DNA of 64,000 bases. Origin: Paralichthys olivaceus (Eukaryota; Chordata; Actinopteri; Pleuronectiformes; Paralichthyidae). The stretch lies in contig NC_091111.1 in NCBI RefSeq assembly GCF_024713975.1, positions 17,985,501 through 18,049,500 on the forward strand, read 5' to 3'. The position numbers and the translations under genes are program-made. Under the pieces are notes generated by a model that saw only the letters and a program-made list of their open reading frames with translations, did not search any database and was not told where the DNA came from. Shown in pieces: positions 1-64,000 of the stretch; position 1 is the stretch's first letter, and each line of letters begins with the position of its first letter.

Positions 1-17470
<17,470 letters not shown>

Positions 17471-18625: not shown

Positions 18626-21082
18626 AATCCATTCACCTACATTATGTCTTGTTGGATAATAATTATTGAAACACGAGTGCATCGCTTGAATCGGAACAAT
18701 GGGGTTGATTGTAAATGCTTTGCTGAGTCATTTCCCTCCAGGATCAATATAATCAGTTATAAGTATCTTGAGTTATAAAGTGGAATTAAATTATTCTGTA
18801 TTAAACAGAAGCTGTTTCTTGGATGAAGATGCTGAGTTAAAGCATCTCTTCTAAATGTTTGCTGACCTAAAACTATTACTGTAATTGTTTATATTTTTCC
18901 CTGCGCTGACTGAGTGAATTCCTCTTGAATAATCCTCCCACCCTTGTCCACCGACTCTCTGAGGAGGATAAGCTGATAACTTCACCCGAGGCTTTCCCCG
19001 AGCCCTTGATCACATCAGTGATTATAACGAGATGAGCTGTGAAGCAGAGAGAACAATCACGCGTCTAAAAATATCTGCATCGTCAGTTCCTGTTGCAGTT
19101 TTACAGCAAGAGAGGAGCATCTGTTTGCATGTTTCAGTAACGTGATCCAGATTGGTTTTACTGGATCTGTTGTCGCTGGTCAGATGATTGAATTCAGAAT
19201 TGTATCTTCTACCAAACAACAGGATATTTAGAACACAGACGTTTAGTAAAAATAAATACAACTCCGACTTTTATGATGTTTTCCAGGAATACGGTTCAAT
19301 AGAGGGGGCGCCACAAGAGGGCAATATAGTCATGAATTAAGGATCAAGAAATAAACTTATCTTTGTGTTATTGGAAGATATATTTTAATTGAGCATGCAA
19401 ATCATCTTTGTTGCTTTTATTTTGGAGAGAGAGACGTTTTATTGTGGAAGTATAACTCAGTGTTTCTGTCCATCTCTGTATCCTAAGATGTTTTTAGAAT
19501 GAAAAGTAAAAGTATAAGACTGGATTCATCCAATAATCTGCAGACAGAGTTTTCATTAATTATGTTGTTTCCCAGTTTTTGGCCGATTTGTTTCTTCCTC
19601 TGTTACAATGGTTCCTAACTTTTGAAACGCAGCCCAACACCTCAGGCTGAATAAACACATCGAACAGGTGAAATTAATAACATCACTCGCCGCATCGCAC
19701 TGAAATAATTGCAGGAGAGGAGACGTCATTAAATGCTGTTACCTCCCACTATGACTAAGTCAAAATGGCTGCTGTAAAAATGAAAAGATAAGACTTCTTT
19801 AATGTGACTCTTCTGGAAATGATAAAGAATAATAAATGATAGAGAATAAGAAGAGCGCTGATGCACGTTTGAAAAATATATTGAGATAAAGTAGATGGAT
19901 GGACAGGGAAGAAAGACATTGATGTTCATCTGCATTGATTTTAAAATTCTACTTATCACTTTTGAAGCAATGAAAGTCCGAGCTGCATTAAGAACTTTTT
20001 ATTCAGGCTCATTAATGAAGCTGATATCTATGAGTTTGTGAAATAAATCTGAATGTGGTTATAGAGGGAACTGTTGGGCCATTCTTGTTTTATTATCTTT
20101 CTCTTAATGTAATTTTTTTTTTTGGTTATTATTTCGGTTAAGCACTTTATGAAGAAAAGTGCTATATAAATAAAGGTTTTATTATTATTATATAATTTAA
20201 AGTGAACATGGAAATATAATTTTACAGCAGATATTTTTGACAAAGCAGAGAACAAAAGCGTCACTCCAACTCAGGGGAGTCATTCCAGGGTCTTTGTTTT
20301 GTGAATGCATGCTCACTGGAACAGCTCGTCGAGAACTGAGCCATTGTTAATGTTATTAATTACACGTGTGTGGAAATCAATATGGCTGCTGTGATAAACG
20401 TCTCTATTGCAGGAGAGTTGTGTGTCTTCAGTGTGTAAAGACACAAAGCTCAGATCTGGAGGAACACAGACACAACAGAGGATAAACCAGTGGAGGTCAT
20501 TCAGTGCATTTAAACCAAATAAAGAAATAAAGGTTGTGTTGTGTGCATTATGGTTTTTAATAGATTTCTTATGTTACTGTCAAACAAACAATTTGGACTT
20601 TTTACAGTAAAGCAGTGAACATTTACCAGTGCATGTTCTTTTCAGTCATCCCTTTTGAATCAGTCCTAGTATGTCAGGATACTATTTGGTGCCTGATAAC
20701 GATCCAGTAGCCTGAACAATAATGATGTGAGAGGATCAAACATCACAACATTTTCACTTTCTAACAGCTGGAGTACTCAGATACTCCACGAAAAAAAAAA
20801 TTTGTGTTACCTTATTTCAGAGAACACTGGGTCACAACGTGCCCAAAAAACTGCACAGCATATAGATCATTTTACTTTTCACTATTAGCCAATTTCAATA
20901 AGTATTTTTATGGGACTCCGAAGTATCTTTTCTCACATACTTACGTTTCCTAGGATTCATGTTTTATCCGTGTCCTGTCGCAAAACAACCGACGTCCAGC
21001 TGAAAGTACTGCCACGTTCGGTTACAGCTTTATTGCAGTTTCTCGCTTTTGTTGAAATGTCCTAAAGAAGCTGGGATCAGTC

Positions 21083-23649
21083 TCAGACCACCGACGTGGT
21101 GCTCTCTGGGTTGATGCGAACCGGCCTCGTGCTTTTCCTCAGGTCCTGCAGCTGTTTGGCCGGTTTGCCCACGCCCTCCTCGAACCTCCGCTCCACCACG
21201 GGCAGCACCGTGTCGTGGAGGAAGGTGGCGTTCTGCAGGACGAAGGCCTTCTTCTCGGGGTCCTGCTCGCAGCGGAGGCTGTAGTCCACGTGCTGCACGG
21301 CCACCAGGATGATCTCCCTCAGGCTCTCCAGCAGCACCATGTGCAGCTCGGGGAAGTAGAGCTTCAGTCCTTCCTCCAGGAAGCTCATCATCTGCTTGGT
21401 GAAGGCCACGATGGTGTAGCTCAGGTTCACCCAGCAGCCGTCACCAGTGTACTGCTCGAAGCTGCCAATGCCGCAGCTGCGCATCTCGTCCTGCAGAGAA
21501 AAAGACCAATATGATAATGTATCTGTGACATCATTCTTCCAATCTGACGTTACTTCACTGACAACTTGAGAACCAACAAGAACAAACAGAACGTGCACCT
21601 TGAGTTTAGTCAGAGCCTCGGGGGTCATGAGGTTCATCCTCCTCCACATCTCCTCGGAGTTTCGGTGCTTGGTGGCTTCGATGATGATGTCGTTGTAGCT
21701 CTGCAGCGCCGCCTTGATGTCTTTGACCAGCAGCGACTGCAAGGTGAAGGTCAGGTCCAGGCCGATCTCTGTCAGCTGCTGACAGTGTTCTTTAGCCACT
21801 TTCACACACTCCGCTGCCGTTGACAGGCTCTCCTTACTGTCGAACACCTGAAGACAATAAACAGTCCCAGTTTCAGGATGACTGTCACATCATTAAACCC
21901 TGTGGTTGTCCTGTCTGACTTTGTGACTCGTCTCCTCTTCCTACCTGTTTGCTGAAGGCGTCCACGAACATCCTCATGGCCGATTTGGACCAGACCACGA
22001 AGGCAGAGTAGCAGCCTGTGTTTCCTGCAAAATCCATCTCAAACTCCTTGGCCGTCTCCAGCAAGCTGGTGAAGAAGATGTTGCAGAGTTTGTGGATGTA
22101 GAGCAGCGTGGCTCCCTCGATGCGAAGCTGCCGTATGGCCGTCTGCACCGCGGCAGCACGGTTCTTCAGAAACAGCTCGCAGGCTTTTGTGGACTGGCCT
22201 GAAACACAGCGGAATAAAACTATTCAGCAGGAGTGGAAAAGTAGATTCAGCCCAGATGTTTTAATGGATTCATGCTGTAATTCTCGATTGTGTTGTTGTC
22301 TATTGTAGCTACGACTACACACTTTTTTTAGAAAGGTTGACCTCTTCATTTTTTGCTGAAATAGAAAACAATAAACATAAATTAATGGGATTTAATATTG
22401 TCCCCCAGAAACGATTAGCCCATGGTGGCGTGAAGACGGTTTAGAGAAGACACAAGACCAGCTGCTGTGTGGTGGATGTGTGAGGTGTGACTGAAAACAA
22501 AATACCTAGTCTGATCAGCTGGGACACAGCCCGTCTTGTGGCTTTAGGTCCTCCGCGAAGTGAACGATCCGGAGACAACTCGAACACCAGGACCTCCGTC
22601 AGCTGCCGCACACGCTCCTCCACCGTCAGCCTGAGGTCTTTGACCTTCTGGGTGACCGGCTCGTCTTTGAGATACTCGTTGAGTTTGTCCAGCAGGTCCA
22701 CGGCGCCCTCGAAGTCTCTCTGGGCGATGCAGACGTCCAGATCCTCGGGCAACTCCTGGATCCACTCCGGGCTGAGGTCCACGCCTTCTTGGGCGTCCAC
22801 TGGCTCGTCCTCGTCGAAAGGGTTGGTGGACACCTCTGCTCTCACAGGTGAGATCGGGACCTCCTCCTCTTTCTTGTGCCGCTCCTTGGTGACCTTGCTC
22901 TTCTTGGTTTCGTCCAGGATCTCCAGCCACTCCTTCTTGACCTTGCTGTTCTCCGCCTGGAAGATGCGGCTGTCGGGGAACATGAGGATCTTGAACATGT
23001 CCTTCATGGGGGGGTTGTCTTTCACGTTGATCACGGCGAAGCTCTCCAGGTCGTACAGGGCGTTGTACTTGTACTTCACGGTGCCTCTGCGGTTGGGCAG
23101 CCAGGTGGCGATCAGCAGGCAGTCGTTCATGAGGAAAGCGTGCACCTTCTGGATGGGGGACATGTTGTCCACGTCAAACTCAACCAGGTCTCCGTTGTAG
23201 ACAAGGTGCCTCCCCGGGGTGTCCATGATGGTCTTAGCTCCCTCCACCTTCTCCAGCAGGGAGGTGAGCGTCCTCTGCTTCAGCTCCTCGGTCTCTTTGG
23301 GGAAAGCAGCCTGCATCTCCTTGGAGGTCTCGTCCTTGTCCGTGGACAGCAGGGCCTGGGTGATGCTCTCCATGATGCTCTTCTGCTCGGTGAGGATGTG
23401 GCTCAGCTGGTACATCTCGCTCTCCAGGTAGGAGATCTCCTTGGCCGTCTCGATGAACTGCCTGTAGTTCTTGTAGACGTTCTTCTTCAGGTTCTGCGCC
23501 GTCTCGTCCGCCAGGTTCTGGATCTTCTGCCGGTGCTCCTGCAGGTCTCGGTCGCCGTCGGACTGTTGCGACAGCTGCTTCACGTAGTTCTGCGGCTCGA
23601 AGTTCGGCGACTCGAGCAGCTTCCGGAGCCGGTTACCGGTTTCCGACAT
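21083..23649 (-). CDS. exoc8: Exocyst complex component 8 (Exo84)
   Basis: EXOC8 is a subunit of the octameric exocyst, which tethers secretory vesicles to the plasma membrane; its PH region is the RalA-binding part. Four coding exons: 23649-22506, 22198-21945, 21847-21599 and 21490-21083, all GT-AG, giving 684 residues (human 725). The start ATG (23649) opens MSETGNRLRKLLESP, followed by the family signature YVKQLSQQSDGDRDLQEHRQ and an N-terminal coiled region to about residue 100. The PH domain follows at roughly 150-265 (LVYNGDLVEFD through SRIFQAENSKVKKEWLEIL), then NPFDEDEP and the Exo84 C-terminal helical part (ELPEDLDVCIAQRDFEGAVD; LRGGPKATRRAVSQLIRLG). It ends RINPESTTSVV as in mammals. 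Human EXOC8 is, to my knowledge, a single-exon gene, so three introns here are of interest. It is head-to-head with sprtn. Confidence 0.96.
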
Positions 23650-24630
23650 GTTGTGCGTTTGTTGTGTTAAAAATCAAGTCGACGCTAAATGTTCGCAGAG
23701 GAAGAGTCGGTCACAGCTCCTCCGTTCATTTCCGCTTTGAAACCCAAACAGGAAGTAGTCAACTCCCTTGGAACGTCACGGGATTCAGGCGAAACTCAGA
23801 TGATCAACAAACAGCTCACACAGTGGTTATTTTCTTTAAATGATTTTTGTTGTGATTGAAACATAATGTCACTCTTCACTCAAAATCATTTAAATATTAA
23901 TTTAAAATTTAAAATTTGACAATATCTTTAATTATTTTGATCATGAAGCGACAAAAAAAGACCCCGGAAAGGTTTTTGTATCGACCAACTACATAATATA
24001 CATAAAGACTACATATCCCAGGATTCATTGCTTTGTTTTTTTGGCTCAACTTTCAGTTTCACAATAAGAGCAGATAAAAAAGCTGAGTTCTAAGAAGCCA
24101 CTTGAAAACTATAAATTATAAGTTCTGATCTTACGACAGTTTCTAAAAATGTTTATTTTATCTCGTTTTTTTCTCTTATCTTCATCTGTTACATATTGTT
24201 ATTCCTGTATCTATCTATTTTTATTCTAATGCTGTGTGATCACTACATTTGTCATTGTACTTGTAAAGCACCTTGTAAATGTGTTCTGCAAGGTGCTATA
24301 AAGTACAAAAAAATCGTATTATTATTGCTACTAAGTGGTAGAAAATACGAAAACTCAAGTAAAGTACAATTATACAAAAAACTATAAAAGTACAGCACTT
24401 GTTTTAATTTGTGTAATTTTATTTTGAAATTCAGCGGAAGTAGGTCAAATTTTGAGCGGAGGGACACCGGAAGTTTTTGGCGGCTGTGGGCAAACGTCAA
24501 CAAGAAGAAAAGATGGAGTCATTCTAGACATTCTCACAGTTTACTGAGATGTTTTAACAGAACGTGCATTGGACAGATGCCAACCGAGGTGAGCTAACGT
24601 CCGTCAGCTGGTTAATGACTTCCTGTTGTC
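23650..24630. promoter_or_regulatory. bidirectional promoter region of exoc8 and sprtn
   Basis: This 981-bp interval separates two divergent start codons. Sites seen: a ZNF143/STAF-type match ACTACATATCCCAGGATTC (24008-24026; family consensus ACTACAATTCCCAGCATGC), an ETS site CCGGAAGT (24467-24474) running into TTTTTGGCGG (24474-24483), an E2F-like word, and a second GCGGAAGT near 24434. On the exoc8 side TTTCCGC and AGGAAGT lie within 110 bp of the ATG. The E2F-like site would suit sprtn, an S-phase repair gene; that is inference. The middle is AT-rich and holds an AGTAC-type repeat scrap. Confidence 0.55.
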
Positions 24631-27098
24631 ATGGAGGAGGATTTCCTGCTCGCGCTGCAGCTGCAGGAGCAGTTTGACACCGAGTACCAGGCGTCGTCGT
24701 TCCCGTCGAACCGTCTCGATGATGTCGGACAGAGCAGCAGCAAGAAGCGGAGGCTGGACGTGTCCTCCTCCGGCACCGGCGGCGAGGTCGTCCCCCACTG
24801 GGAGAAGCCCGAGAGGCCGCTGTCCATCGTGGACGAGTCCTGGGAGACGCTGGACCCCAGCCCCGATGTCCGGGCCATGTTCCTGGAGTTCAACCACACG
24901 TTCTTCTGGGGGAAGCTCAGCGGCGTGGAGGTGAAGTGGAGCCGCCGAATGACGCTGTAAGTCACCTGCTGTCAGCTGGTGTCTGATGTTGACGTGGCTG
25001 TTCGGTCAAAATCACTGTATCATCCAAATCCTGTAAAATTGCCTGATTTTTACATGGAGTTTGGTTTGGGTCATCTCAATAAATCAATGCTGCTGATTTA
25101 TCGTTGATATTTCCATGCACAGTTTAATGTGTCTGCTCTTTTTCTTAGATGTGCCGGTGTGTGTTCGTACGAGGGCCGAGGTGGACTGTGTTCCATCAGA
25201 CTCAGTGAACCTCTGCTGAAACTGAGACCCAGAAAAGACCTGGTTCAGGTAACGAGGAAACACTCAAGTCTTAAATCCCAGCTGGGAATGTGATCTGGAT
25301 TCCTTGATCAGAGAGGAATCTTTTTTTTTTTTTCCCCAGACTCTCCTCCATGAAATGATTCACGCCCTCCTGTTCGTGACCCAGAACAACAGAGACAGAG
25401 ACGGTCACGGACCTGAGTTCTGCAAACATATGAATCGTATCAACGATGCCACTGGAACGAATATCACCGTACGACCTCTTCTAATACACATTCAGCCGAA
25501 ATCTTATCAGTGAATTAATACTGTGATCTAAAGAAAAAACAACCCACTGAAACTCCTGTCCGTCCTCCGTCTTCTCCTCAGATCTACCACAGCTTCCACG
25601 ATGAGGTTGATGTGTACCGGCAGCACTGGTGGCGGTGCAACGGGCCCTGCCAGAACCGCAAGCCCTTCTTTGGCTACGTGAAGAGGGCCATGAACCGGGC
25701 TCCGTCGTCTCTGGACCCCTGGTGGGCGGACCACCAGAGGACGTGTGGCGGGACTTACACCAAGATCAAGGAGCCTGAAGGATATGGCAAGAAAGGCAAG
25801 AAGGATGGTAAAAAGGACGGGAAGACGTTAATTAAGGAGACCTCTGGAAGTGGCAAACCTTCCAGTACAGCTACAGGTAACACGACCGGACCTCCTGTGT
25901 GTCTTCAGCTGTAATCGATGTGTAGTTTCAACATTTATAGATAGATAGATAGATAGATAGACATACTTTATTACGTACCGTTAAGTGTTTTAGAATCACT
26001 TATTTGCACAGACCATGAAGTGTCATTTAAATATATAAATATAAAGTTATTTGATGCCGTATAAACTGGATAACTTATTTCTGTACAGCGAGAGGAAGTG
26101 GAGATGTGTCGTCCGTCTTGATATCCAGTCTACGGCTCTGGTCTACTGCTTCACTCTAATTTGCACTTCTTCTCCTCTCAGGTTCTGGATCACAGGATAT
26201 AAGGAACATTATCCCGTTTACCGGTAAAGGCTTCCTTCTCGGGGGGAAGTCGCAGACCTCCACGTCTTCCTCCCCATTTCACAAACCAACAGTTCCTCCT
26301 GTGAAAACACCATCGTCCAGCCCAGTCTCCTCTCCTCCCAAGAAACTCTTCCCCCCCTCGTCCCCGGCTAAAAGTCTCACTTCGCCTGTACGCTCTGGAA
26401 TCTCTGGTGCTTTTCCCTCCACGGGCCAAAAGCCGCCTAAAAAGAGGTCGGTGGGTAACACGCGTGTGTTTGTCAACATCAACGGGTCACCGGTTAGAAT
26501 CCTTAAACCACACAGCAACAGCAACAGAAGCCAAGGAGCAGAGACAACAAAGCAAAAGTCCATCCAGGATGTTTTTAACAGCATAGGCGTCAGAAAATCA
26601 GGGAGCCACTCCTCAAATACTGAGACTAAAAGAGACTCGCTGACATCGCCAAAGACGAGCGCTACCTCAGTCTCTTCACTGATTCCTAAACAACAAAGTT
26701 CCTCCTCTGCCAGCACGCCTACGCCAGGTCCAACTGTAGTTTTAAACAGAGACAGCACCGATAAACCAACACAGTCAAAATATTTCAACAGTGACAGTAC
26801 GTCAGGAGCAGCAGGTGGAGGTCAGAACCCGAGGAAGAGGCCGTGGGACAACAGCTCAGCCAGCGTCTTTGACTTCTTCCAGAAAACATTAGGCGCCGAA
26901 TCATCAGCGTCAGGGGAGTCGGTAAAGACGAGATCACCTGCAGTGCAGCGAAGACCTGTTACTGCTACAGCCACCACTTCTTCCTCCTCCTCCTCCTCAT
27001 CCTCCTCCTCCTCCTCGCTGATGGTCAGCTGTCCCGTGTGCCAAGCGAAGGTGCAGGAGTCAAAGATCAATGAGCATCTTGACTCCTGTCTCTGCTGA
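24631..27098 (+). CDS. sprtn: SprT-like metalloprotease Spartan (DNA-protein crosslink repair)
   Basis: SPRTN is the DNA-dependent protease that degrades DNA-protein crosslinks at replication forks; it is recruited through PCNA, p97/VCP and ubiquitin. Exons: 24631-24956, 25149-25248, 25340-25468, 25582-25876, 26182-27098, giving 588 residues. Seen: N-terminal MEEDFLLALQLQEQF; the zinc site H146-E147-M-I-H150 (TLLHEMIHALLFVT) with H165 in GHGPEF; HWWRCNGPCQ and HQRTCGGTYTKIKEPE closing the SprT domain; an SHP box FTGKGFLLG at about 296-304 for p97; a PIP-box-like QKSIQDVF; and a C-terminal UBZ4 finger with C567, C570, H582, C586 that ends two residues after the last ligand. Serine runs near the C-terminus come from a TCC microsatellite (about 26980-27017). 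The catalytic triad is intact. Confidence 0.97.
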
Positions 27099-48000: not shown

Positions 48001-51000
48001 AAGATGGACGACATGACAGGTCTAAACCACGTGTGTGGCTGGCTGTAGCATTAGAACTAAAATGTCAAAGCACGTGTCAAGTAAGCAAACAAATATGGTT
48101 TCTGTCATTTAAGATAGTCCTCATCAGTCTGAGATGTTTAATGTGATAAAAACCCAGTTGATGGGTTAAACCAATAATATTTTCTAAATGATTAATGTCT
48201 TTTTTTTACAGGGTGACCCGGAGCTGGTCAGTGCCATTTATGGGAGAGGGATAGCTTATGGAAAGAAAAGTCTGCAGGTGAGTTCAAATATAACTACACA
48301 GGAGAGCGAGGTATATTTTAGTTTCATTCATTTCTCTATGTTTTGCCACTTGGCTCTGTGTTTTATGGGCCTGTAATTTCTCTACATCTTCCCCCTCTGG
48401 AATGAAAATGAGCAACATAAATACAGAACGTTTACTTATCAAGCATTAAAATACAAATGAAATGTGCCGCATGAATTCAAGTCATTTACAGCGTCATAAA
48501 CTGAATGATTAGGTTGTAATTAAAGTCAAGTCAGTGAAGAGTTAGCTTCAAAAGAAAACACATAATTAAGGTGTTTTGATTATTCATATCAGTTGATTCA
48601 TATTTCACACGTCTTCATATTGTTTGATTTTAATTCATTTTCCTCTTCATGTTTAGTTTTGTGCCAAAACAGTCAAATCTAAAAACTGATTTAAACAATT
48701 CTACACATTTTCTGAAGCCCACAGCTTTATTCTGCAGACTAGGAAGTTTTATGTGAATGCATTTAGTTGTATTTGTCTCAGTAATGGAATCCTGAATTTT
48801 GGTGACAACAGCAGTTTCAGGCGAAAACCCACAATAACTCAGTGTGATATTCAATAAGAGCAAATTCAATCTGCCATGACTCTGCAGCTCTGGACGTGTT
48901 CCCCTGCAGAAACAAATGTTGATGGCTGTTTTTAGCCGTCGGTGCATTAAACATGTATATACACATAAACATTGTACCGATAAAATATAACTGACTTCGC
49001 TCTGTCCCTTTGCCAGGACATAAAGAATGCTGACTTGGCTTTGTACGAGCTCAACAGAGTCATCACGCTGGAGCCAAACTGGCCAGAAGTCTACGAACAG
49101 AGAGCAGAGGTAAGAGCCGAACCTGCTCAGAGGTTTCCAATAATCATAAAAAGGTACTCTAAACGCTCCGGTAGAGTTTTTAATTGACACAACACCCTTT
49201 ACAGTCTCCAGCTCTTGGCACCGATGGATCTAATGTTGCTGATAAAACCATTAAACTGGTTTCTGAGCTGTTTGTGACCTGAAATGGATCATTAAATACC
49301 AGAGTGTCCGATCAGGTTTATGTTTAGATGTCTAATCAGCTGCTCTATTCATAGCGGGATTTGCACAGACTGATATTATCTCTGATGTAAGTAGAGATTA
49401 TCAATGTTGTAAACAGCAGAAACTATGTTGCGTCATGTTTATGGATTGTGCGCAGCCTAAAGAGAAGAGGACGCTCTGAAGTCCAAGTCACCGTTGTTTC
49501 TCAGGGTTGAACGAGGGTTGATGGGTACTGTGGGCCAGAGGGGTACTGTGGGCCAGAGGGGTAGTGTGGGCCAGAGGGGTAGTGTGGGCCAGAGGGGTAG
49601 TGTGGGCCAGAGGGGTACTGTGGGCCAGAGGGGTACTGTGGGCCAGAGGTGTACTGTGGGCCAGAGGGGTACTGTGGGCCAGAGGTGTACTGTGGGCCAG
49701 GGCACGTAGGGATTTTAAAGGTGAGGAGGAAGGTTTTGTAAAGAATGCAGAAGTTGACAGGAAGCCAATGATGATGGATGAGGGGGTGGGGGTGATGTGC
49801 TGCCAGGGCTTCGTAAGGGTGAGAACCCTGGCAGCTGAGTGCTGGACATACTGGAGCCTGTCCACGTCCTTGGACATGACATTTAGTATTTACTTGGCTT
49901 CCGTTGTGTCTTTAGATCCTGTCTCCTCTGGGTCGTATCAGTGAGGCTCTGGGCGATCTGACCAAAGCCATCCAGCTGCAGCCGTCCGCTCGACTCTACA
50001 GACACAGAGGAACGCTGCTCTTCATTTCAGAGGTTTGGTGATTAAGCTCCCTCTATGTGCATGTTTGTGAACATTTGAGTGTGTGCGCTGACGCTGTGTT
50101 GCTCCTTCCCACCAGGACTACGTGGCAGCTATGGAGGACTTCCAGCAGTCTTTAGAGCTGAAGAAGAATCAGCCCATCGCCATGCTTTATAAGGGCCTCA
50201 CCTTCTTCCACAGAGGCATGCTCAAGGTGAGTTCTTCTTTTGAGCCACTTGGAATATTTATTTTTATGCTTTGATTATTCATTAATGTTTAAACATTTGT
50301 TTTTGCCAACTTAAAGTGCAAAATGACTGGAAATGTTTCCCTTAGAGGCCTTTCTTAACTCTTAACTACAGTACGGACACAAATCTTCATGGAAATCCAT
50401 TTAAAAAAGAGAACAATTGAAAGGAGTTTTCTTGAGTAAGATAAACAGATTGTTGTTCACGATCAGTTATGAGATGGACGAAGCAGAAGCTCATTGTGTT
50501 GCTTGCATGCTCCGTGTTCTACTTTCTGAGTCTGGGTTTTGAACCTGATTTTCACAAATGACCACATCGTGCAGTCTGTTCTGCAAAATGTCTGAACGAC
50601 CCGCTGAGTCACAACTTACGCTCTTGATGTTCCTTATTGCAGTTTCCTTTTTTTGTTGGCAGTGTGTGAAAGGTTGCTGTGTTTTCTCTCATCAGGAAGC
50701 TATCGAGACTTTCAAAGAGGCACTGAAGTTCAAGCCTGACTTCATAGATGCATATAAGAGCCTAGGTCAGGCGTACAGGTACAGCAGCGCTATTGTTTCT
50801 GGATTTCAAACTTGTATGGAAAAATTCAGTTTGTCCTTTTTATTCCGGGATATGAGAGTCACACCTTTCATGCTTTACTTACCAGCTCTTTTGGTGTCTT
50901 CTTCCTCTTTTCAGAGAGCTGGGTGATTTTGAGTCAGCTATGGAGAGTTTCCAGAAAGCTCTCATGTTGAACCAGAACCACATCCAGTCTCTCCAGCTCC

Positions 51001-54000
51001 GAGGCATGATGCTCTACCACCACGGCTCCCTGCAGGAGGCCATAGGCAACTTCAAGGTAGAGGAGTTCACAAGATTCATCCAAACTGCACTTTGAGCCGC
51101 AGGAATAAACTCCAGCTTCAGCAACAGATGCACAGTTCACTCCTCGTGTCCTCTTGTTCGGTCTTTCCTCAGAGGTGTCTTCAGTTGGAGCCCTATAACG
51201 AGGTGTGCCAGTACATGAAGGGGTTGAGCCACGTGGCCATGGGGCAGTTCTACGAGGGGATCAAAGCTCAGACTAAAGTCATGTTGAACGATCCTCTGCT
51301 GGGACAGAAGGCCAGCTCTGAATACCTCAAAGTGAAGTACCTCAGAGGTGGGTGTTTCCCCTCACGCTATATATTCAGTTTAGCAGAGTTTATGTTTAGT
51401 GTATTCAAACGGTCAGTGATGATGAACAAGTCTTCTGACTGAAACAAATCCCTGGTGGTTGTTATTTTAGGTGATGTCTTATATTCTCTCTCTGCTTTGC
51501 TTTTCGTTTTGTTTTTCTGCCAGAGTACTCTCGCTACCTGCACTCCCACCTGGACATCCCAGTAGCGGAATACAACGTGGACCAGGATTTACCAGGAAAC
51601 TTCAAGAATCACTGGGCCAAGAACCTGCCTTTTCTAATAGAAGACTATGAAGAGCAGCCCGGCCTGCAGCCACATATCAAGTAGGTCACACACTGGTTTT
51701 TATTCCTTGTCCCTGTTAACGTAGCCCTGAGATCAAAACGCAAACGAAACCACACACAGGGAAGATTGGTTGGTTTTATTTGAAGATCTTACAGGTTGCC
51801 CTTCGCTTCACCTCCAGCTCGTCTTCTGTAGGAAATCTGGTTCCATCACCACCCAAATATCTTGAGCTGCAGTTGGAAGCAATTTTTCTGAGCTCAGAGC
51901 TGAGGCAGTCAGAGTCTAGTGGTTGAAAGCAAACACCTGCGGTCTTTCCTCATGACATTAATGCCCAAGTGTTTTTATGCCTCTGTCAGCAAAATGAAAA
52001 TAGTTTCTTTGGTCTCATAAAGACGTTTCAGAGGTTTGACAGGTAGCCGCAGTAGAAGTAAAATCTGCTCACTTCTCGTATAAGCTTTGATGAAGTTCAT
52101 CCTCTGTGTCATCCTCTCCTCTCTGTGGTTTGCAGGGACGTGCTGCCGCAGAACTTCGACAGCTACAGCAGCGAAGTTCAGAAACTGATATGCACGGCCG
52201 ACCATCTGGGGGCGCTAATGCAATATGACACTCCTGGTTTCCTACCGAACAGGAGAATACACAGAGGTGCCGGTGACAAACGCTGCCGCTCATAAAGATC
52301 ATTTAGGTGTAAATAACGGGGGTAAATAAATAATGTACATCTCTTTTTCAGCCATGGGTTTAGCAACGCTGGAGGTCATGCAGGCCATGCATCGAACATG
52401 GAGCAACTCCAAAGTGCGAGTCAACGGCAAGACCAGGCAAATGCAGTGGAGAGACATGTTTGATATAGCTGTTAAATGGAGAAGGTGAGATAACAACTAA
52501 AAACAAAACTATTCAAAGGGCAAATTACTTTAAATAAAGATGTGGCGTAATAAACTTTATAGACTGATGTAATTTGACAGTTTAATACGGTGACGACAGA
52601 TATTTTACTGACCAAAGAAAGACATTTTAGTTTTAAATTACTGTTAAAGTAGTAGTGCTGCTGTGGTTTGGAAGGATTGACTATTACCAAAACACATAAA
52701 AATGTGAGTCTACGTATTCCAGGAGACGTTCAGGAGCAACTGTTGAATCGTAATTGTCTCCGGGAAATTAACCTTAAAACCCAAAAGATTTAGGGATGAA
52801 GACAAATGTTCAATATATGAGTCTTCCATAAAAATGATAGATCATTCTAGATTTCAGCCATTTTCACGATATGATCATAGAAAATAACAAAGGAAACCTT
52901 TTAGTTATTGAATTTCACCGTTGGCAAACTAAACAGGTTTCTCTGTGTGTGCTCGTAGGATCGCTGATCCAGACCAGCCTGTTTTGTGGTTAGACCAGAT
53001 GCCTGCCAGGAGTCTCAGCCGAGGCTTCAACAATCACATCAACCTCATCAGGTAACGAGCTGATCCCCCCCGAGGATGTGCTCAGACTCTCATGAGTCCC
53101 TCGTGTGACTTGAATTTCCTCGTGTCCTCGACCTTTGGGTTCATCTCATCGGTTTAGCCCCAAAAATTTGTGTTTAAAATTCCAATTTTCACTTCCTGTG
53201 GTCTTGTTCCTGACATGTTGACTCCTGCCACCATGTTGACATGCCTTTTGATCTTTCTTCTCTTTCCTCAGGGGACAGATTATCAACATCCGATACCTGG
53301 CTTACTTTGACAACATCCTGGACTTTATCAAAGACAGAATACTGGTGTACCACGGGTGAACTACAGCTAAACCTCTTTCCTTTCATTCACTGACAAACTG
53401 CCGTTGTGTTAATACGCTCGCCACTTCCTACAAGGGAGCATCATGTAAATTACTCTGGGCTGTTTTCATTTCACAGGAAAGTGTTGAGGAAGTATGTGAA
53501 TGTTTTTATATCTGTTTTTTCAGCGTCTTTGTGACAAATATGTGTTAATAATGTCTCACAGGGCGTACAACCCCAGAGGTTTACTAGAAGTCCGACAGGC
53601 TCTTGAAAATGTCAACAAAGTAGAAGATCTTCTGCCCATAATGAAGGTAAAGAGGAGGGAAATACAGGAACAAAAGTAATGTTGGAGCAAATTAACCGAA
53701 GATGCAGTAGATTTAGTCTCAAATTTATATTTAATATATTGCAAAACATCATCGTTCAGCATCAAAAACCCAGGAAGGTTATGTGTGTGTGTGTTTTTTG
53801 TGTTTATTTTCTGAAGCAGTTCAACAGTAAAACCAGAGATGGCTTCACAGTCAACTCCAAGGTTCCGAGCATGAAGGATGCTGGGAAAGAGTACGATGGT
53901 TTTACCATCACCATCACCGGAGACAGGCAAGATTTTTTTTTTTTTTCATTTTATAGTTTTATACACTCGCTTCATCACGCTGAAGAAAATCTGTTGAAAT

Positions 54001-55660: not shown

Positions 55661-57865
55661 CGACTTCTGGAGGCGGGTCTGTTCGCTAAAGTCTTAAAGA
55701 TAGAGCTTCTACACTGGGCAGAACAACGTGACTTTTATTTCTTCCTCAACCCAAACTGAACCGGACTCAAATCAACTCGGCTTTAATGATTATTATTTGA
55801 ATTTTAAAAAAGAAGATCAGACCATTATTTGTTTTTTCCAATTAAAACTTTGATTAGTTTAATTTCCAAACACACTCCTGCTTTGTTCTCTGTCATCTTC
55901 CCTTCAACGCTTCTTCGCACACGACTCCTAACATCGCAGCTGGGAAGTTTTTTTTTTCAAATTTGCTTTAATTCTATTTAAATCACCACCACAGTCAACA
56001 GCAAAGAGCCACAGTTAGTGAGACCTTTCTTTAATTGGATAATTAGATCTCGAGCAGGAAGGAACAAATACTACCAAGTCCACCCAAATATGACAGAATC
56101 CAAAACGTGGTTTTCTGTTGAAGCTTCTCGGATCCACGCTGATTTATTTCTAAGTATATATTTTCATAAAGTTTAATAGCGGATCAGTTTTAACGAGAAC
56201 TGAATATTTGGCGTCTTTCACAACGATACTTTGAGTTGGTCTTTGTGTTTCCAGACTGAGAAATGACAGAGAGCATTGAAGCAGGATGTGTCCGTTAGTT
56301 TGGCTGAAACCTGATTCTCTCTCTCTCGCTCTCTCTCCCTCTCGCTCTCTCTCTCTCTCGCTCGCTCGCTCTCTCTCTCTCGGCCTGACGCTCAAACACC
56401 CAAAGCACAAAACTCATCAGCACGAACAATCTGTCATCGCACAGACAAAATCCCTAGTTTTAGTTCACCACGAATGTTGAATTTTCATCTTCATGTCTGG
56501 TTATTTAAGTTTTGAATCGACGCTGTTACGTATTAAAGTTTTTTTTAATTTAACGTTGAAGATCGTAATTGGCACTTTAAACTTCTGCCTCTTCAAACCG
56601 CTGCTGTGCTCCAGCCTGTCAGCAGAGAAGGAGCTGAGGGATTTTCAAGAGACAAGAAACAAAACCTCGGCGGTTGAATTCCACTGTGGATCCTCGTAGC
56701 TAGTGTCTCTTCTTAGTTTGTTTTCTCAACGCTCGCAGTGGAAGTGTCACTTCTCTTTTCTTGGGCTGAACTTCTGGTTTCTTTTACTGTGACCAGTGAC
56801 GGGTTGGTACAAAGAAGAGTTTCTGAACTGAAGCAAGAGTGACAGTCAGAGATTTTAGAGAAAGTTCGGAGATATTGACAAACGAGACAATCAATCAATT
56901 TATAATTCATAATTAACTTGAAAAAGAAAATAACCATTGATTTTTATTAAATTCTATATTACCTTTAAAATATAATGAGCAACGATTGATCCTCCAGTAG
57001 AAGCCACAAAATAAGAGCTCCTGAATGTTCCCTGACTTCTCTGACTGGTTTATCTTGTTGAGGATTAATTAAAAGTGAAATAGAAAAGCACACAGCAACT
57101 GTTATTTCCTTTGCGATCATTCCTTAAACCTGCTTTGAAAGACATCTCAACAAGCTCACAGATATCTAACTCACTGGATTTTTATAGTTTTCATGGAATT
57201 ACACTGATGTTTTATGAAAATGTGTTTAAATCTGGAAAACTCGTGTGAGGGAAGATGTGACGTGCAGTAACCTCATGAAACTGAACGCTGAAGGGTCTGA
57301 GGCTACGTGTGCGGCTGCTGTCGGATATTTGAACGACTCGTCAATCTGAGTTTAAGCACAAGGAGAAAAGTGCTCATTTCAAAGTATTGAGTCCCTCGAA
57401 CAAATTTCATTTCCTTCTTATTTAAACGTTTATGATGAAGAGGCCTTTAACATATCACTGAATGTCCAGTTTGTTGATCTTCTCATTCGATCTTTTTCAT
57501 TTTCCTGCATCACTGACAGTGAATGGCTGACACTGGTTTTGCTTTGTGTCACTTTTCTTTTTCACATCAACGATTGTTCTGATGGGTTTTAATGTTTATC
57601 TGTTTTTGCACTGGCTGCTCCAGTCACGAGTCGCTGCAGGGACGAGTGCACGACCTGAAATCTTGAAGCCTAAAACTGGAAGGAGGGAATTTCTTTTTAA
57701 ATGAATGAGTGAACGAATGTTTTAGTCAATAAAACTGGTTGACAACTTTATCAGCTACTCTTGTCGTCTTTGGGAAACATTTCTGTGTGTGTCTCTCTCT
57801 CTCTCTCTGAGTGTGTGTATAACTTTTTATAACTTTTTAGTATTTTTGTACTCGTATGTTTGCAC

Positions 57866-58025
57866 AGTGAAGGAGCGGCTCTATAATTATATTATACACC
57901 CTGCTCAATGACAATAAAGGCATTATTCTTCCTGAACCAGATCAACCAGACGGAGTGTTGACATCTAATCCCTGTCACGCTTCTCTCCGACACAATAACG
58001 TTTCACTAATCAGCTTTGTGACGTT
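57866..58025 (+). repeat. direct repeat A flanking selenoprotein L exon 1 (left copy)
   Basis: CAGTGAAGGAGCGGCTCTAT, ACACCCTGCTCAATGACAAT, GTGTTGACATCTAATCCCTG and TTCACTAATCAGCTTT match, with small changes and in the same order, the block at 59218-59385. The two copies are about 1.35 kb apart and in direct orientation. Confidence 0.85.
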
Positions 58026-58391: not shown

Positions 58392-61300
58392 ATGGCTGCA
58401 GATGTGGACACGGTGGCGAGCGGACTCGGTCTCTTGGTTAATTTAGGTCAAGTTCTTCTGCAGGAAGCTCAGAAGGACGCAGCAGGTGAGACTCGTGTGG
58501 AACCAGACTCCGTTTACAATTTAACCGTTTTAACGATTTGATTCATTTTGCCGGATATGCGAAAGAACACATTAATCTCCGTTACTGTTGTGAATTGTCA
58601 ACCGTATTGACAACAGTTTGACGTTGTGTTCGTGAAGTGTTACGCCGAATTGAAGACAAGTTTAAAGTGATGCTGAATTTACGTTTAACTTTGTTGTACA
58701 ATCAATGTGTTTTCCCCAATATGCATAAGAACTTTAAAATGTGTGAAATCTAAATAGAGTCTGGGACTATAGAAACATTTACCATGCTAAATTGAAGTCA
58801 CAGACCATGTTACATTTTTAAAGTATTAATATAAAATATAGTTTTATCTGCTAAATGTTAAACGAAGAAAGGAGTGAAACCACCTGGAAAACAAACTTGT
58901 GTAAACCAGGTTTGGTGTTTAATTATCTTTCTTACTTGTTCTTTATGGGTTTAAGTTAAATTGCTGAAATATTAAGTTGATTCCGAATTGAAGCATTGAT
59001 TCCGAATTCATGTTTAATTTAGTTGTAGGACTCAAATCTTGTTCCCAACTAAAACAAAATGGTGGAAGTTATAAAGGAGTCTGGGGTCAAATGTTCATTA
59101 TGTAGGATTAAACATCAGATCCTGTCCAAAAATTAAGTAACATCATATAACTTTTCACAACTGGGTCACGAGAAGCCTTTTGTTCCTCATATTTAAATAA
59201 CGTATTTTTTAACTTTCACACTGTGAAGGAGCGGCTCTATAATTATAATATACACCCTGTTCACTGACAATAAAGTTATTCTTCTTCTTCTTGAACCAGA
59301 TCAACGAGACAAAGTGTTGACATCTAATCCCCGTCACACTTCTCTCCAACACTGTAACGTCTCACTAATCAGCTTTTGTCCATAATGTCGCCCTTTGTCT
59401 TCAAACAGCCTCATTGGAGACTTTCGTCCCCGGAAAGATCAGCACGTTATTCGGCCTGATCACCGCAGCAGCAGACTTCCACACGAGGTGAGATATGTTT
59501 CCCCGACGGAAACACAATCATGTGACCGACTCTAAATAAAGCTTCATTGTGTAAATCGACAGTTTTAATCTTAAAGGTTCAGTGTGCAACATTCAGGTGA
59601 AAGGATCCATTGGCAGAAACTGAATATAAAATAATCCTCGTGATGTTTTTACTTGTGTGTATCATAGAAATTGTACAAGTAGTTTTTTTCTTTACCCTTC
59701 GTATTTAAATATTTAATATGTACATCAGGAGCAGGTCCTCTCTACGGAGGCCGCCATGTTTTTTTTTTACAGTAGCCCAGACTGGACAAACTAAACCTTT
59801 TTGAGTTTTTATCACAACTGAAGCTGCCGCAGGTTCTCGTTCATGTTTGGAAGTGGAGCGGGAGGTGAGGGGTGTTCAGCTGCAACATGAAACTTCACCA
59901 CTAGATGTCACTGCATTCCACACACTGAACCTTTAAGTGTCTCGTCTTTTCAAATTGTTTGTTGAGTTAGTGTTTTGTTATTGTTGAGCAGCCTCGGAGT
60001 GAAGAAGAAGAGTGAAGCAGAGGCCATCTGGCAGAAGTTTTATCAGTAAGTATATGATCGTGCATATTCTTGATAGATAATCAAATGTTAGTGTGATTTG
60101 TCAAAATAAGGGGCGACTCTCCTTCTTGCTAAGACACTGTGATTGTTCACCGTCTTATTGGTTGTCGGTGGAAATGACCCCACCGTGTGTGGACGTCTCT
60201 TCATCACACGCTGTCTGTATTTTTGCAGCCATGCAGCAGTGAGGGAGAAGGTGGACGAGCTTCTGCAGCTGGAGGTCTGATACTTTTTTTATTTACTTAA
60301 CTGTAAATCTTTATACATTTGTGTTAATTCATTATTAATTAATTTAATTGAAGCGTGTAGACGTGATTAAATCAACCTGCTGTTTAAACCCAACTCAATA
60401 TTCAGTAGAGACCATGACAATATTTATTCAAATTTTGATATAATGCAACCCACTCCCTCATGATTTCATTAAGTAAATAGTTTATCTACCTGTAGCACCT
60501 ATGATGATGTGGGTTTTTGGGGGGGTCAATGTCAGTTCCTATATTAAAATATATTAGAAATGTACAATCCTGATATATCGGCCGATATATATTTAAAAAA
60601 TGTCAAACAACTTTATCAAGAAATTGAATTGAGGCTTGATGTTTTACATTTTAACCATAAACATGATGATGAATAAACAGAAATAAAGAGAAACGTCAAA
60701 TTAACACCAATGCATATCTTTTCTGTATGGATTATTTTGTCCAGCTGTAACTCAGACTGATCTGATTGAAGACTCATTATTCATGGTATGTGTTTGATTG
60801 TGTGCAGAGTGAGTGGGACACCTTCCTGGAGGGCGTGGACAAAGATCTGCAGACCACAGACCGACAGCTCTCAGGAGTGAAGACCCCCGACAGTCTGAGC
60901 CCCGACGTTACGTTTACTGACGCGCGGAGCGGAAAGTGAGCTCACACACGGCTGCTTACACTCTAACCAGCCTCAGACTAAACATGAGCGTCTGGTAGAT
61001 GAACAAACCAGCTCAGACCATCAGCTTCTTCCAGTTGGTGTTAAAAGAATCACACTTTCTGTTTTGTTGAAGGAGCGTGACTCTGGGCGAGTACCTGGGT
61101 CAGAAGCTGCTGCTGGTTCTCATCAGACATGTCGGATGACTGCCGTGACGGGACCACGTGGCTGAGCTGGAGGCCAGACAGGTCAGTTTACTCTAAACAA
61201 CCAGGTTCTGTTACTGAGTCGTCACCTCATCCTGCAGCTTCTGGTGATGATCGACAGCTAAAGGGAGGTTACAGGGGTCACGTGATGAATCTGAAAGGAT

Positions 61301-63125
61301 CAACGGGATGGCAGAGAAAGAAATGGTTGTTTATTTAAACTGAATAGAGCAATAGTTCAATAAAAGATTATTTTCCACGTTGGTGGGATCTTTTATTATT
61401 TAACTTCTCCAAAAAGCACAGGAGCAAAACTTAAGATTTATAGTTTGATCATTCTGCTGTGTTGTTTGTGAGTGAAAGACAAACTCTGGAGAAAGTCCAG
61501 ACCCAGTTGTTCAGACGTTCTCCAGAGTTCATGCCTGAAAACAACGTGCGTGTTGAAGTATCTGCTGACGTTCTCTGTTATGTTGGTGTGTGGAAACCGA
61601 ATAAAGAATCTATCTGTCTCTCAAAAGTCTTTTCTCTTGTAGTGTTTGAATAAATATATTATCTGGGTTGTGTTGCAGTCCGCTCAGTTTCTTTATTTCC
61701 GTGTCGTCTACACACTGACTGTTGTGAGTTTTACCTGGAACGTGTTGCTGTAGCCTCACTCCTATATGTGACCACTCACTGTATATTTAAAATAATAAAT
61801 CTTGTTTATCATTTAAATTGTTTTTTTTATTTTACTTTTCAAGAATAAAGCTGAAATGTCATGAATGACCCTGGTACTCTCCCGTAGTTGGTGTCGACCT
61901 TCTGATCTAACTCGAAGCAAAGTGTTGTACTAAGTCGGCTCCAGAAGTTTCTTCTCCTCTGTGGCTCCAAAAGATTCCAACATTTTTTCCATCATGTCTG
62001 TGTTCACTCAGCCTTTCAGCCCATTTACCTTCACATAAATTTATATATATATAAAGTAAAAGTGAAAAGCGACAGATGCTTTCGTCTTCTCTGGGTCCTC
62101 TGTACCTGATGGTTTTGTTCTGGTTTCCCTGCAGGCTGACCTGGAGGCTCGCTCACTACGGGTCCTGGTCGTTTCTTTCAGCAGCTCAGAGGGAGCTCGG
62201 CTGTGGCTCGAACAGACGGGATGTAACTTTGACATGATGCTGGATCCACAGAGAGAGGTCAGCCTGTGTTTCTTCTTCCTCATCAACTTTCTAAAACATT
62301 TTCAGTTGGACTCTTAGCCAACTTAGCCAAAGCATCTCAATCGCCCCCCCCTGGTGGCAGGCCCTATATAGACCGTAAACCATGCCTCCTCCATGTTAGT
62401 GGATGGGACCAAACTAAAAAGCCAAAAGCTACTGCGCAGACTCTGGCTCCCAATGACCTCATCAGTGTAAGATGTATCTGGGATGTTTTAGCTCATTTTC
62501 CGGACAGTGGGTAAAAGGTCTGTGACTCCGACTCACCGCAGTGAGCTGAGGGAACCAGATGATCGAGCAGCTGTTTGATAATGTGTGTCATAAAAGTTTT
62601 GCACGCTCCAAAACTTTTATTCGGAAAAAGTCAGAGTCTCTAGGTGTGAGAAGATGTGAGATGGAAATAAAGGCAATGAACCAAAATATGGAGACGGAGA
62701 AGATTTTCCACATTTTCAGATCTACAGGAGATTTGGCCTCGGCTCGTCCTACGCCAAGGTTCTGAAGTTCGGCTTCCTGCTGCAGTACTCACATTACAGA
62801 GCTGAGGACATAGACGTCCCCGACATCCCCCCTCGCCTGCTGGAGGACCTGTTCCAGGTAAAAGACTGTTAGACGTCCAGATTATTCAAAATCTCAAAGC
62901 AAATCAACTGTTAATAAGATAAAAAACGTACTGATTTATGTGTTTTAATCCTTTCAGATGGGAGGAGACTTTTTACTGGATGAAGCAGGACACGTGCTTT
63001 TTTCGCACCCGTGCAAAAACCCCGAGGACAGGCCGACTGTGACGGACATCCTGCAGGTGGCGGACGCCGTGGAGTGCTCAGCCGTCTCTGCGTTGAACCA
63101 ACAGTACGTGGCCTTAAAGCTGTGA
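58392..63125 (+). CDS. selenol: Selenoprotein L (UxxU thioredoxin-fold selenoprotein)
   Basis: Selenoprotein L is a thioredoxin-fold selenoprotein known from fish and other aquatic life, with two selenocysteines in UxxU that form a diselenide. Nine exons, all GT-AG: 58392-58485, 59409-59487, 59992-60045, 60229-60274, 60808-60935, 61073-61181, 62135-62257, 62720-62857, 62958-63125; 312 residues if both TGAs are read as Sec. The site lies in exon 6, after the strand LLLVLIRHVG: Sec156-Leu-Pro-Sec159, then RDHVAELEARQ, where peroxiredoxin-like relatives have CxxCREH. Exon 7 gives the next strand, SLRVLVVSFSSSEGARLW, then CNFDMMLDPQRE and, in exon 8, IYRRFGLGSSYAKVLKFGFL, as in the AhpC/TSA-like family; exon 9 has FLLDEAGHVLFSHPCKNPED. 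The first five exons code a charged helical N-terminal part. Splice frames close only when both TGAs are read through, and a SECIS-like hairpin follows the stop. Confidence 0.93.
59218..59385 (+). repeat. direct repeat A flanking selenoprotein L exon 1 (right copy)
   Basis: This is the second copy of the block at 57866-58025: GTGAAGGAGCGGCTCTATAA, ACACCCTGTTCACTGACAAT, GTGTTGACATCTAATCCCCG, CTCACTAATCAGCTTTTG. It ends about 23 bp before exon 2. A CTT run (59280-59293) distinguishes it from the left copy. Confidence 0.85.
59571..59936. mobile_element. MITE with TTAAAGGTTCAGTGTG terminal inverted repeats
   Basis: The element is bounded by TTAAAGGTTCAGTGTG (59571-59586) and its exact inverse CACACTGAACCTTTAA (59921-59936), 366 bp in all. 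The inside has the usual text of a very common teleost MITE: GGATCCATTGGCAGAAACTG, AAATAATCCTCGTGATGTTT, CTCTCTACGGAGGCCGCCAT and CACCACTAGATGTCACTGCA. TTAA at both ends may be the target duplication. It is non-coding and sits in selenoprotein L intron 2. The perfect ends suggest a fairly recent insertion. Confidence 0.85.
61137..61148 (+). other. selenol: two in-frame TGA (Sec) codons, UxxU redox site
   Basis: The reading frame of exon 6 is GGA TGA CTG CCG TGA CGG, i.e. Gly-Sec-Leu-Pro-Sec-Arg, with TGA at 61137-61139 and 61146-61148. The codons on both sides stay coding and conserved, and the next exon continues in the same frame, so neither behaves as a stop. The positions match the CxxC of thioredoxin-like relatives at the start of the first helix. 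Confidence 0.93.
61182..62134 (+). other. selenol: selenoprotein L intron 6
   Basis: The 953-bp intron after the UxxU exon has several AATAAA words (near 61358, 61598 and 61794) and a LINE-like tail (about 61590-61640). No exon was found in it. An alternative short transcript ending here is possible but not shown. Confidence 0.6.
62328..62475 (+). repeat. MITE-family fragment in selenoprotein L intron 7
   Basis: CCCCCCTGGTGGCAGG, TATAGACCGTAAACCATGCC and TCCTCCATGTTAGTGGATGG match the core of the elements at 35641, 42021 and 47993. It is the fourth member of this family in the window. Confidence 0.55.
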
Positions 63126-63169
63126 CACGCGTGTGAACGTTTTGACGACACAGGGTGAAACACGTCACT

Positions 63170-63298
63170 GACACCACAGAGGGAGAGCGGCTCTTCGTCT
63201 CACGTGAATGAAGTCACGTCTTGCTCTCATGACGCCATGAAAAGACGTGATCGATGAAAAACCGTACGACGAGGACGTCTGCTCTTCTCTGTGGTGTC
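63170..63298 (+). promoter_or_regulatory. selenol: SECIS element in the selenoprotein L 3' UTR, inside a long stem
   Basis: The core begins 83 bp after the stop. 5' AATGAA (63207-63212) and 3' CGAT (63252-63255) give the non-Watson-Crick quartet (U-U, G-A, A-G, A-C). Between them GTCACGTCTT (63213-63222) pairs over 10 bp with AAGACGTGAT (63242-63251). The apical part holds a second hairpin, TCATG/CATGA around ACGC (63227-63240), as in form 2 SECIS. A lower stem CTTCGTC (63193-63199) pairs with GACGAGG (63268-63274), and an outer stem of about 18 pairs joins 63170-63188 to 63281-63298. The usual AA on the 5' side of the apical loop is not seen; the bases there are GCTC. Confidence 0.82.
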
Positions 63299-64000
63299 AC
63301 TGTTGTGATGGCAACTTTTTAGATTTAGTAGAACTACTTGATTGCATTGTCCCTGATTTATATCCAAATTTAAATACTTATTCTACGTAAGTATAATTTT
63401 TCTCTATAAAAAAGATTCTGATGAAGCAAAACTGTCTTTTTAACCTTTTAGCCCTTTTTAATTAATCACAAAATGAAGCTGTAAACCTGTAGAAAAAAAA
63501 TGTATTAAACATTTACATTCAGACATTTATGTACATCGCCCTCTGATTTTATATTTTGTGGGACGCACAGCAACAAGTCTTTTCTTTTGGAGCGTGTGAA
63601 GCAGTTTTCCTGCACAGTCACGGTCTCTGTCAGCGTTTATTAAAACCACGTCACAGATCTGTAGTGACTGAGAAGCACGGCCTCATTCCAGTTAAGTTGA
63701 ATCCACACTGCTCTGTATCTTCCAGGGGTCAGTTTGTGCTTTTCATGTTTTCTCTTCTTGGGAATTGTCGAACAAATATTTAGAACTCTGTGCTTGAAAT
63801 CACAGCAGATTCCCGACTGACTGACTTACATTCATGTCACTGCAGCTGCACCAACAACACAACATTTATATTAGTAACATTATCTCACAAAGTCTTATCC
63901 TGACGTCAATAGCAGTACGTACACTTGTGCGCATTTGAGACACTAAAAATCCTAAAATAAACTCACACTAAACTACACAAACTGTATATCACACTGGAAT
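63299..64000 (+). other. selenoprotein L 3' UTR and downstream DNA
   Basis: A possible ATTAAA signal lies at 63504-63509. Beyond it nothing is recognised to the right edge; open frames are short and have no family match I know. Confidence 0.4.

What the first reader, a model, noticed from the sequence alone, without database searches (positions are those of the whole stretch)
61073..61181. Selenoprotein L with Sec-Leu-Pro-Sec at a thioredoxin-type active site
Seen: two in-frame TGA codons nine bases apart within a conserved exon, with flanking splice frames that close only if both are read. Known: fish selenoprotein L carries UxxU and forms a diselenide. Reading the TGAs as stops would cut the protein at residue 155, before most of the fold, so automatic gene models for this locus are likely wrong.
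Basis: partly seen in the sequence, partly recalled or inferred. Interest (0 to 1): 0.85.

Follow-up and report, generated by a model that had tools for sequence, protein, structure and literature searches.

The report
Fish selenoprotein L, unusual SECIS candidate
This looks like the fish version of a known protein that carries two selenium-containing amino acids close together at its active site, but the only RNA signal found that could let the cell read its two stop codons as selenocysteine lacks a normally conserved pair of bases.

Summary
Exon 6 (61073-61181) of a nine-exon gene model (58392-63125, +) has two in-frame TGAs (61137-61139, 61146-61148) giving U-L-P-U at residues 156-159 of 312. 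Each frame of exon 6 holds a stop, and skipping the exon breaks the frame. NCBIfam NF040769, "SelL-related redox protein", matches residues 123-291 at 157.8 bits (cut-off 120), or 142.5 with X at both TGAs. The two sides alone hit profile positions 4-36 and 41-172, leaving four positions for U-L-P-U. The genome shows no second copy and has a tRNA-Sec with anticodon TCA. This is selenoprotein L (SELENOL), a known family.

The unexpected part is the 3' UTR. A strong hairpin (63169-63299; z -6.49) holds a SECIS core (AUGA, 10 bp, CGAU; 63208-63255), but its apical motif is GCUC, not AA or CC. Rfam and a model of this genome's SECIS do not recognise it. I accept an AA-type SECIS for 6 of 7 TGA-bearing GPX loci. 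For this gene I found none convincing in the 875 nt left in the window or nearby beyond. Function is untested.

The parts
58392..58485 (+). exon 1 with start codon
   Evidence: gt donor and frame; N-terminal part not covered by the matched family profile
59409..59487 (+). exon 2
   Evidence: splice signals and frame only
59992..60045 (+). exon 3
   Evidence: splice signals and frame only
60229..60274 (+). exon 4
   Evidence: splice signals and frame only
60808..60935 (+). exon 5, contains the start of the thioredoxin-like domain
   Evidence: domain match starts at residue 121-123
61073..61181 (+). exon 6 with the two Sec codons
61137..61139 (+). first TGA, residue 156 (U), followed by C
61146..61148 (+). 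second TGA, residue 159 (U), followed by C
62135..62257 (+). exon 7
62720..62857 (+). exon 8
62958..63125 (+). exon 9 and true stop codon (TGA)
63169..63299 (+). 3' UTR hairpin with 33 pairs below the core; candidate SECIS with long helix 1
   Evidence: -70.1 kcal/mol for 63165-63320, z -6.49, 0 of 200 shuffles as good; pair count; one match in the genome
63208..63255 (+). SECIS core: A-UGAA / CGAU quartet, 10-bp helix 2 (63213-63222 with 63242-63251), apical GCUC (63223-63226) and a 5-bp upper helix (63227-63231 with 63236-63240)
   Evidence: lines up with the own-genome SECIS model at 7.1 bits, not significant

Best explanation
The locus is the SELENOL (selenoprotein L) gene of a fish. Both UGAs of exon 6 are read as selenocysteine by tRNA-Sec, directed by one 3' UTR SECIS, giving a thioredoxin-fold (AhpC/TSA-like) protein whose U-L-P-U stands in place of CxxC and can form a diselenide. 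The SECIS is most likely the hairpin at 63169-63299, whose kink-turn core can bind SBP2. Its apical motif is GCUC instead of AA or CC, so decoding may be weaker or lean on context: both UGAs are followed by C, and a stem-loop lies directly downstream of the pair. Shown here: gene model, domain homology across both TGAs, no second copy, tRNA-Sec, the hairpin and its core. Inferred: Sec insertion, that this hairpin is the SECIS in use, SBP2 binding, the diselenide, and that the genome is a fish's (from gene content and the published fish-only range of SelL among vertebrates, PMC3316567).
For: NF040769 157.8 bits over residues 123-291, 142.5 with X at both TGAs, both sides co-linear with a four-position gap. 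C instead of X at the two positions adds 15.3 bits, as expected if the family has Cys or Sec there (the profile letters were not seen). Pfam AhpC-TSA_2, AhpC-TSA and Redoxin over cut-off. With C for U, both TGAs align with the CxxC of PDB 3kcm, 1jfu and 3gl3 in weak matches (E 0.0008-0.004). All 7 genome matches at E <= 0.001 are exons of this locus. tRNA-Sec on C11, 76.8 bits, anticodon TCA. Seven GPX loci with TGA inside the match. The AUGA/10-bp/NGAN core occurs once on both strands of the 64-kb window, with 82 nt between the stop codon and its A; 4 of 5000 simulated UTRs have one. One SECIS serves two Sec in SelL (PMC3316567 passage).
Against: The candidate has no AA or CC at the position that published rules give. 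Rfam SECIS_1 does not match it even at E 10. A model from eight SECIS of this genome gives it 7.1 bits, second of four weak matches in 3 kb, behind 8.5 bits for a place in intron 7. In the whole window that model lists three other places at 12.8-13.9 bits and not the candidate, while its own training members score 51.3-71.9. The core pattern behind the chance estimates was written after I had seen the hairpin. No other fish sequence could be compared, so conservation of the hairpin is untested.
Confidence: 0.67

Rival explanations
1. The gene is SELENOL but the SECIS in use lies elsewhere, in a more distal 3' UTR or a further 3' UTR exon, and the hairpin at 63169-63299 is incidental.
For: The hairpin lacks AA/CC, Rfam misses it and the own-genome model does not single it out. 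Some selenoprotein genes have the SECIS in a separate last exon (PMC3316567 passage).
Against: In the 875 nt after the stop, sequence-only AA or CC pattern hits exist at 63142 and 63664 but with at most 4 of 9 helix pairs, and none reaches 6 of 9. The first 3.1 kb of the adjoining locus L038 gives one weak CC candidate (6 of 9, -0.9 kcal/mol). All 10 kb of L038 gives nothing over 7.5 bits by the model and no SECIS by Rfam at E 10. The hairpin has the right core in the right place.
Confidence: 0.13
2. The gene is SELENOL in decline: the SECIS has lost its apical motif and decoding is poor or gone, so the mRNA yields mostly a 155-residue fragment or is degraded.
For: Apical AA/CC absent, which published work calls required or essential for Sec incorporation (passages in PMC3328465, and PMC3706390). 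UGA1 lies 42, 165 and 303 nt upstream of three exon junctions, so failed decoding would expose the mRNA to nonsense-mediated decay (inference).
Against: The 312-codon frame and the splice sites are intact. The 153 residues after the TGAs still match the family at E 5.1e-32. The hairpin and its core are intact.
Confidence: 0.15
3. Pseudogene or chance open frame; the TGAs are true stops.
For: Two in-frame TGAs and no transcript data here.
Against: No other stop in 312 codons and all introns GT-AG. Co-linear family match on both sides. The two TGAs fall on the CxxC positions.
Confidence: 0.02
4. The gene belongs to the related SELENOU/PRXL2 family rather than SELENOL.
For: Pfam AhpC-TSA_2 is shared; PF13911 also hits pieces beside two other SECIS places of this genome, L042 and L044.
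Against: Two Sec codons in UxxU, and a match over cut-off to the SelL-related model NF040769. Only a remote match to prostamide/prostaglandin F synthase 9us9 (E 0.014; that this is PRXL2B is recalled).
Confidence: 0.03

Closest known systems
Selenoprotein L (SELENOL, SelL) of fishes and other aquatic organisms (Shchedrina et al. 2007 PNAS, not held; cited in passages of PMC2398784, PMC2397514 and PMC12822975)
   Same: Two Sec codons two residues apart in a thioredoxin-like domain, a 3' UTR stem-loop with the SECIS core, match to the SelL-related model NF040769.
   Different: The SECIS candidate here carries GCUC instead of AA. Whether other fish SelL SECIS share this could not be checked.
Eukaryotic SECIS element (Rfam RF00031, SECIS_1)
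   Same: A-UGA / NGAN quartet, 10-bp helix 2, internal loop, helix 1, form-2 upper helix.
   Different: No AA or CC in the apical bulge, no Rfam match, 33 pairs below the core.
SELENOU / PRXL2 (AhpC-TSA_2, PF13911)
   Same: Same Pfam domain.
   Different: Two Sec in UxxU; matched over cut-off by the SelL-related model.

Membership tests
SELENOL (SelL) | Two in-frame UGA in a UxxU motif | tested here: met
SELENOL (SelL) | Thioredoxin-like / AhpC-TSA-like domain with UxxU at the CxxC place | tested here: met
SELENOL (SelL) | Match to a curated SelL-related model over cut-off | tested here: met
   NF040769, 157.8 bits against cut-off 120; 142.5 with X at both TGAs
SELENOL (SelL) | One SECIS in the 3' UTR | tested here: inconclusive
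   One SECIS-core hairpin found; apical motif not canonical; not recognised by Rfam or by the own-genome model
SELENOL (SelL) | Diselenide bond and Sec incorporation | not testable with these tools
   needs protein
SELENOL (SelL) | Orthology to named fish SelL sequences | not testable with these tools
   no fish sequence collection offered; the own genome has no relatives here
Eukaryotic SECIS | A-UGA / NGAN quartet with helix 2 of about 10 bp | tested here: met
Eukaryotic SECIS | Unpaired AA (rarely CC) 10-13 nt after the quartet | tested here: not met
   dinucleotides TG, GC, CT, TC at the allowed spacings (read from the sequence)
Eukaryotic SECIS | Match to Rfam SECIS_1 | tested here: not met
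   eight other places in the same genome match at E <= 10, five of them over the cut-off
SELENOU / PRXL2 | At most one Sec in the active-site motif (recalled) | tested here: not met
   two Sec codons

The most novel reading that the evidence does not exclude
A vertebrate SECIS that works without the apical AA or CC motif and drives insertion of two selenocysteines, helped by the UGA-C contexts and a stem-loop immediately downstream of the two UGAs. This would mean that the apical motif is not strictly required, at least for this gene.
Probability: 0.4. Interest if true: 0.6.

Novelty: new member of a known kind. Interest (0 to 1): 0.38.

Why it matters
Selenoprotein L is already known as a protein with a natural diselenide, so one more fish gene adds little by itself. 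The SECIS matters more. The apical AA/CC is called required or essential (PMC3328465; PMC3706390), yet its exact role is described as not known (PMC3316567). An intact two-Sec gene whose only SECIS candidate found here lacks it would be a natural experiment on that motif, and SECIS searches that demand AA or CC would miss it.

Tried and rejected
Rfam on the window, the UTR and the hairpin: no SECIS match. Viral contigs by protein: 25 stretches matched a pattern, none a relative. Viral contigs by a U-x-P-U DNA pattern: 28 stretches, which share the motif by construction; best blastp E was 0.002, from four stretches aligned at residues 150-177, and 19 of 28 were listed at E <= 1; I took none as a relative and did not follow them further. 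GTDB contigs by protein: 46 stretches, 2 loci, both with CxPC motifs at 37% over residues 123-184 and 33% over 123-197, so no bacterial UxxU relative was obtained. My first SECIS scan used a wrong quartet register and missed the candidate; corrected. The first covariance model had one pair mis-typed and was rebuilt; only the second was used for searches. Controls that start from proteins were completed for GPX only; the deiodinase (PF00837) and Sep15/SelM (PF08806) searches did not complete. Fold prediction was not attempted: the tool takes proteins that the window gives letter for letter, and this one is spliced.

Stem-loop after the UGAs: of three stretches first tested, z was -1.98, -2.63 and -0.67. 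In a scan of 287 80-nt windows along the CDS the five best all start from UGA1 to directly after UGA2 (best z -3.0), but a window starting 3 nt later has z -0.82. The five overlap and count as one event, and I looked at this place first. A weak lead for a selenocysteine redefinition element (term recalled).

Identity as SELENOL taken alone I hold at about 0.95.

Full report
Observation. Exon 6 at 61073-61181 has TGA at 61137-61139 and 61146-61148 in one frame. I rebuilt nine exons from 58392 to 63125; the spliced frame is 312 residues with U at 156 and 159, reading RHVG-U-L-P-U-RDHV. All introns are GT-AG. Each frame of exon 6 carries a stop, so no other frame avoids the problem, and skipping the exon (109 nt) shifts the frame into several stops. 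The finding's residue 155 and 312-residue product are exact.

Identity. NCBIfam NF040769 (SelL-related redox protein) matches residues 123-291 at 157.8 bits, cut-off 120. With X at both TGAs the score is 142.5. The upstream piece alone reaches profile position 36 (15.5 bits, E 0.01) and the downstream piece alone starts at 41 (110.9 bits, E 5.1e-32), so the four residues U-L-P-U fill the gap. Pfam gives AhpC-TSA_2, AhpC-TSA and Redoxin over their cut-offs. PDB matches are remote (best E 0.00079) and, with C for U, place the two TGAs on the CxxC cysteines of thioredoxin-fold proteins. The profile letters were not seen.

Genome context. The window lies in a 588-Mb genome of 25 contigs; the protein matches 7 places at E <= 0.001, all exons of this locus. 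The tRNA-Sec model gives 13 matches, two over the cut-off; ARAGORN calls the best tRNA-Sec (anticodon TCA) and the second a tRNA-Ser. The GPX family gives 17 matches, which I group by position into 7 loci with TGA inside a match and two places without; that each TGA sits at the Sec site was not checked. Rfam SECIS_1 gives 8 places at E <= 10, 5 over the cut-off, with only 150 of 13358 candidates scored. All 8 carry AAA in the apical columns of my alignment, but they were found by a model that may favour this.

SECIS. The 3' UTR folds into a strong hairpin, z -6.49, 0 of 200 shuffles as good, matched once in the genome. Its centre has A-UGAA / CGAU with ten contiguous pairs (63208-63255), the only such core on either strand of the 64-kb window; with 9 of 10 pairs allowed there are three. 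First-order Markov sequence gives a mean of 0.05 per 64-kb strand over 20 runs, and 4 of 5000 simulated UTRs have one. The pattern was written after I had seen the hairpin. Where a published rule expects AA or CC (10-13 nt after the quartet, PMC2375036 passage) this hairpin has TG, GC, CT or TC (read from the sequence). PMC3328465 states that three unpaired adenosines or cytidines are required (passage). PMC3316567 reports AA in almost all vertebrate SECIS, with CC in SelM of placental mammals and SelO of mammals (passage). PMC2874816 adds CC in a sea squirt DsbA (passage). PMC2873472 reports AA in flatworm SECIS, although the Schistosoma ones needed the non-canonical search pattern (passages).

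Control that starts from proteins. For the 7 GPX loci with TGA I looked downstream for a SECIS. Three come from the Rfam list by strand and position: L041 and L043 over the cut-off, L046 below it. The own-genome model, run on the last-exon loci of all 7, found L046 and L043 again, which are its own training members, missed L041 (about 1.56 kb from the exon, beyond the flank held), and gave L057 13.9 bits at E 0.18, no better than chance places in the window. Pattern and pairing gave L057 (7 of 9 pairs, -8.5 kcal/mol), L061 (9 of 9, -11.5), L063 (6 of 9, -8.7) and L055 (6 of 9, -2.4), all with AA. In 128 kb of window, both strands, the same scan gives 66 candidates of at least 6 pairs, 6 with at least 7 pairs and -8 kcal/mol or better, 2 with at least 6 pairs, that energy and TGAT, and none with 9. 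I therefore accept L057, L061 and L063 and reject L055: 6 of 7 with AA, of which 3 rest on pattern and pairing. The scan gives nothing in the SelL 3' UTR within the window and one weak CC candidate in the first 3.1 kb of L038. The model gives the SelL hairpin 7.1 bits, behind 8.5 bits for an intron place, and does not list it in the whole window, where three other places score 12.8-13.9. Its best in the 10 kb of L038 is 7.5 bits; the two alignments shown there are nearly empty of stem. These results fit a SelL SECIS that departs from the pattern of its own genome, but do not prove that the hairpin is the SECIS.

Mechanism. Shown: gene model, motif, domain, tRNA-Sec, hairpin. Inferred: SBP2 binds the core. 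The two SBP2 domains still interact in the presence of an apical-loop mutant SECIS (PMC3328465 passage), and L30 binding survives deletion of the AAR motif (PMC3706390 passage), so binding without AA is plausible while insertion efficiency stays open. UGA1 lies 556 nt upstream of the core. Both UGAs are followed by C, a context known to be leaky (recalled). The lowest fold z-scores along the CDS start at the UGA pair. UGA1 lies 42, 165 and 303 nt upstream of three exon junctions, so low selenium should expose the mRNA to decay (inference). Possible poly(A) signals in the window are at 63504, 63639 and 63956.

Known or new. SELENOL with two nearby Sec, and its diselenide, are known (passages in PMC3316567, PMC2397514 and PMC12822975; the 2007 PNAS paper was not held). 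SelL is also reported in invertebrates (PMC3473315 passages) and UxxU in marine and other prokaryotic Prx-like proteins (passages in PMC2398784, and PMC13188914). Poor annotation of SELENOL in Ensembl is in print (PMC12822975). I saw no report of a SelL SECIS without AA/CC in the listings of my paper searches or the passages read; these cover open-licence papers only, and I read no whole text. The verdict is a new member of a known family with one feature worth a bench test.

Noticed in passing
57863-58017 and 59219-59376: A segment of about 155 bp is present twice, upstream of SELENOL and in its intron 1, 87-90% identical. Its first 69 nt or so also match dispersed places: 40 matches in all were scored in the genome.
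   Followed up: partly
16386-27095 and 50549-51439: Of 10 open frames scanned with Pfam, 5 had hits: a RING/B-box gene (-), two frames with Exo84 domains (-, EXOC8-like), one with the SPRTN zinc-binding domain (+) and one with TPR repeats (+). The TPR gene looks like TTC13 and the block like human 1q42 (recalled), which would point to where tetrapods lost SELENOL.
   Followed up: partly
from 61149 (exon 6) into exon 7 (62135 on), in the spliced mRNA: A stem-loop begins right after the second UGA and spans the exon 6-7 junction; lowest z-scores of 287 CDS windows, but sensitive to window start.
   Followed up: partly
L042, L044, L045 (G000 C14 and C21): Other SECIS places lie beside pieces that match AhpC-TSA_2 (L042 and L044, just over cut-off), probably SELENOU (recalled); L042 and L045 are 6.5 kb apart on C14.
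   Followed up: no
L055 (G000 C9 11024844): A GPX-like locus with TGA inside a match for which no convincing SECIS was found in the 1.5 kb held downstream.
   Followed up: no
residues 46-98 of the protein (exons 2-5): A weak match to Pfam Smac_DIABLO (E 0.022, below cut-off) in the N-terminal part that the SelL profile does not cover.
   Followed up: no
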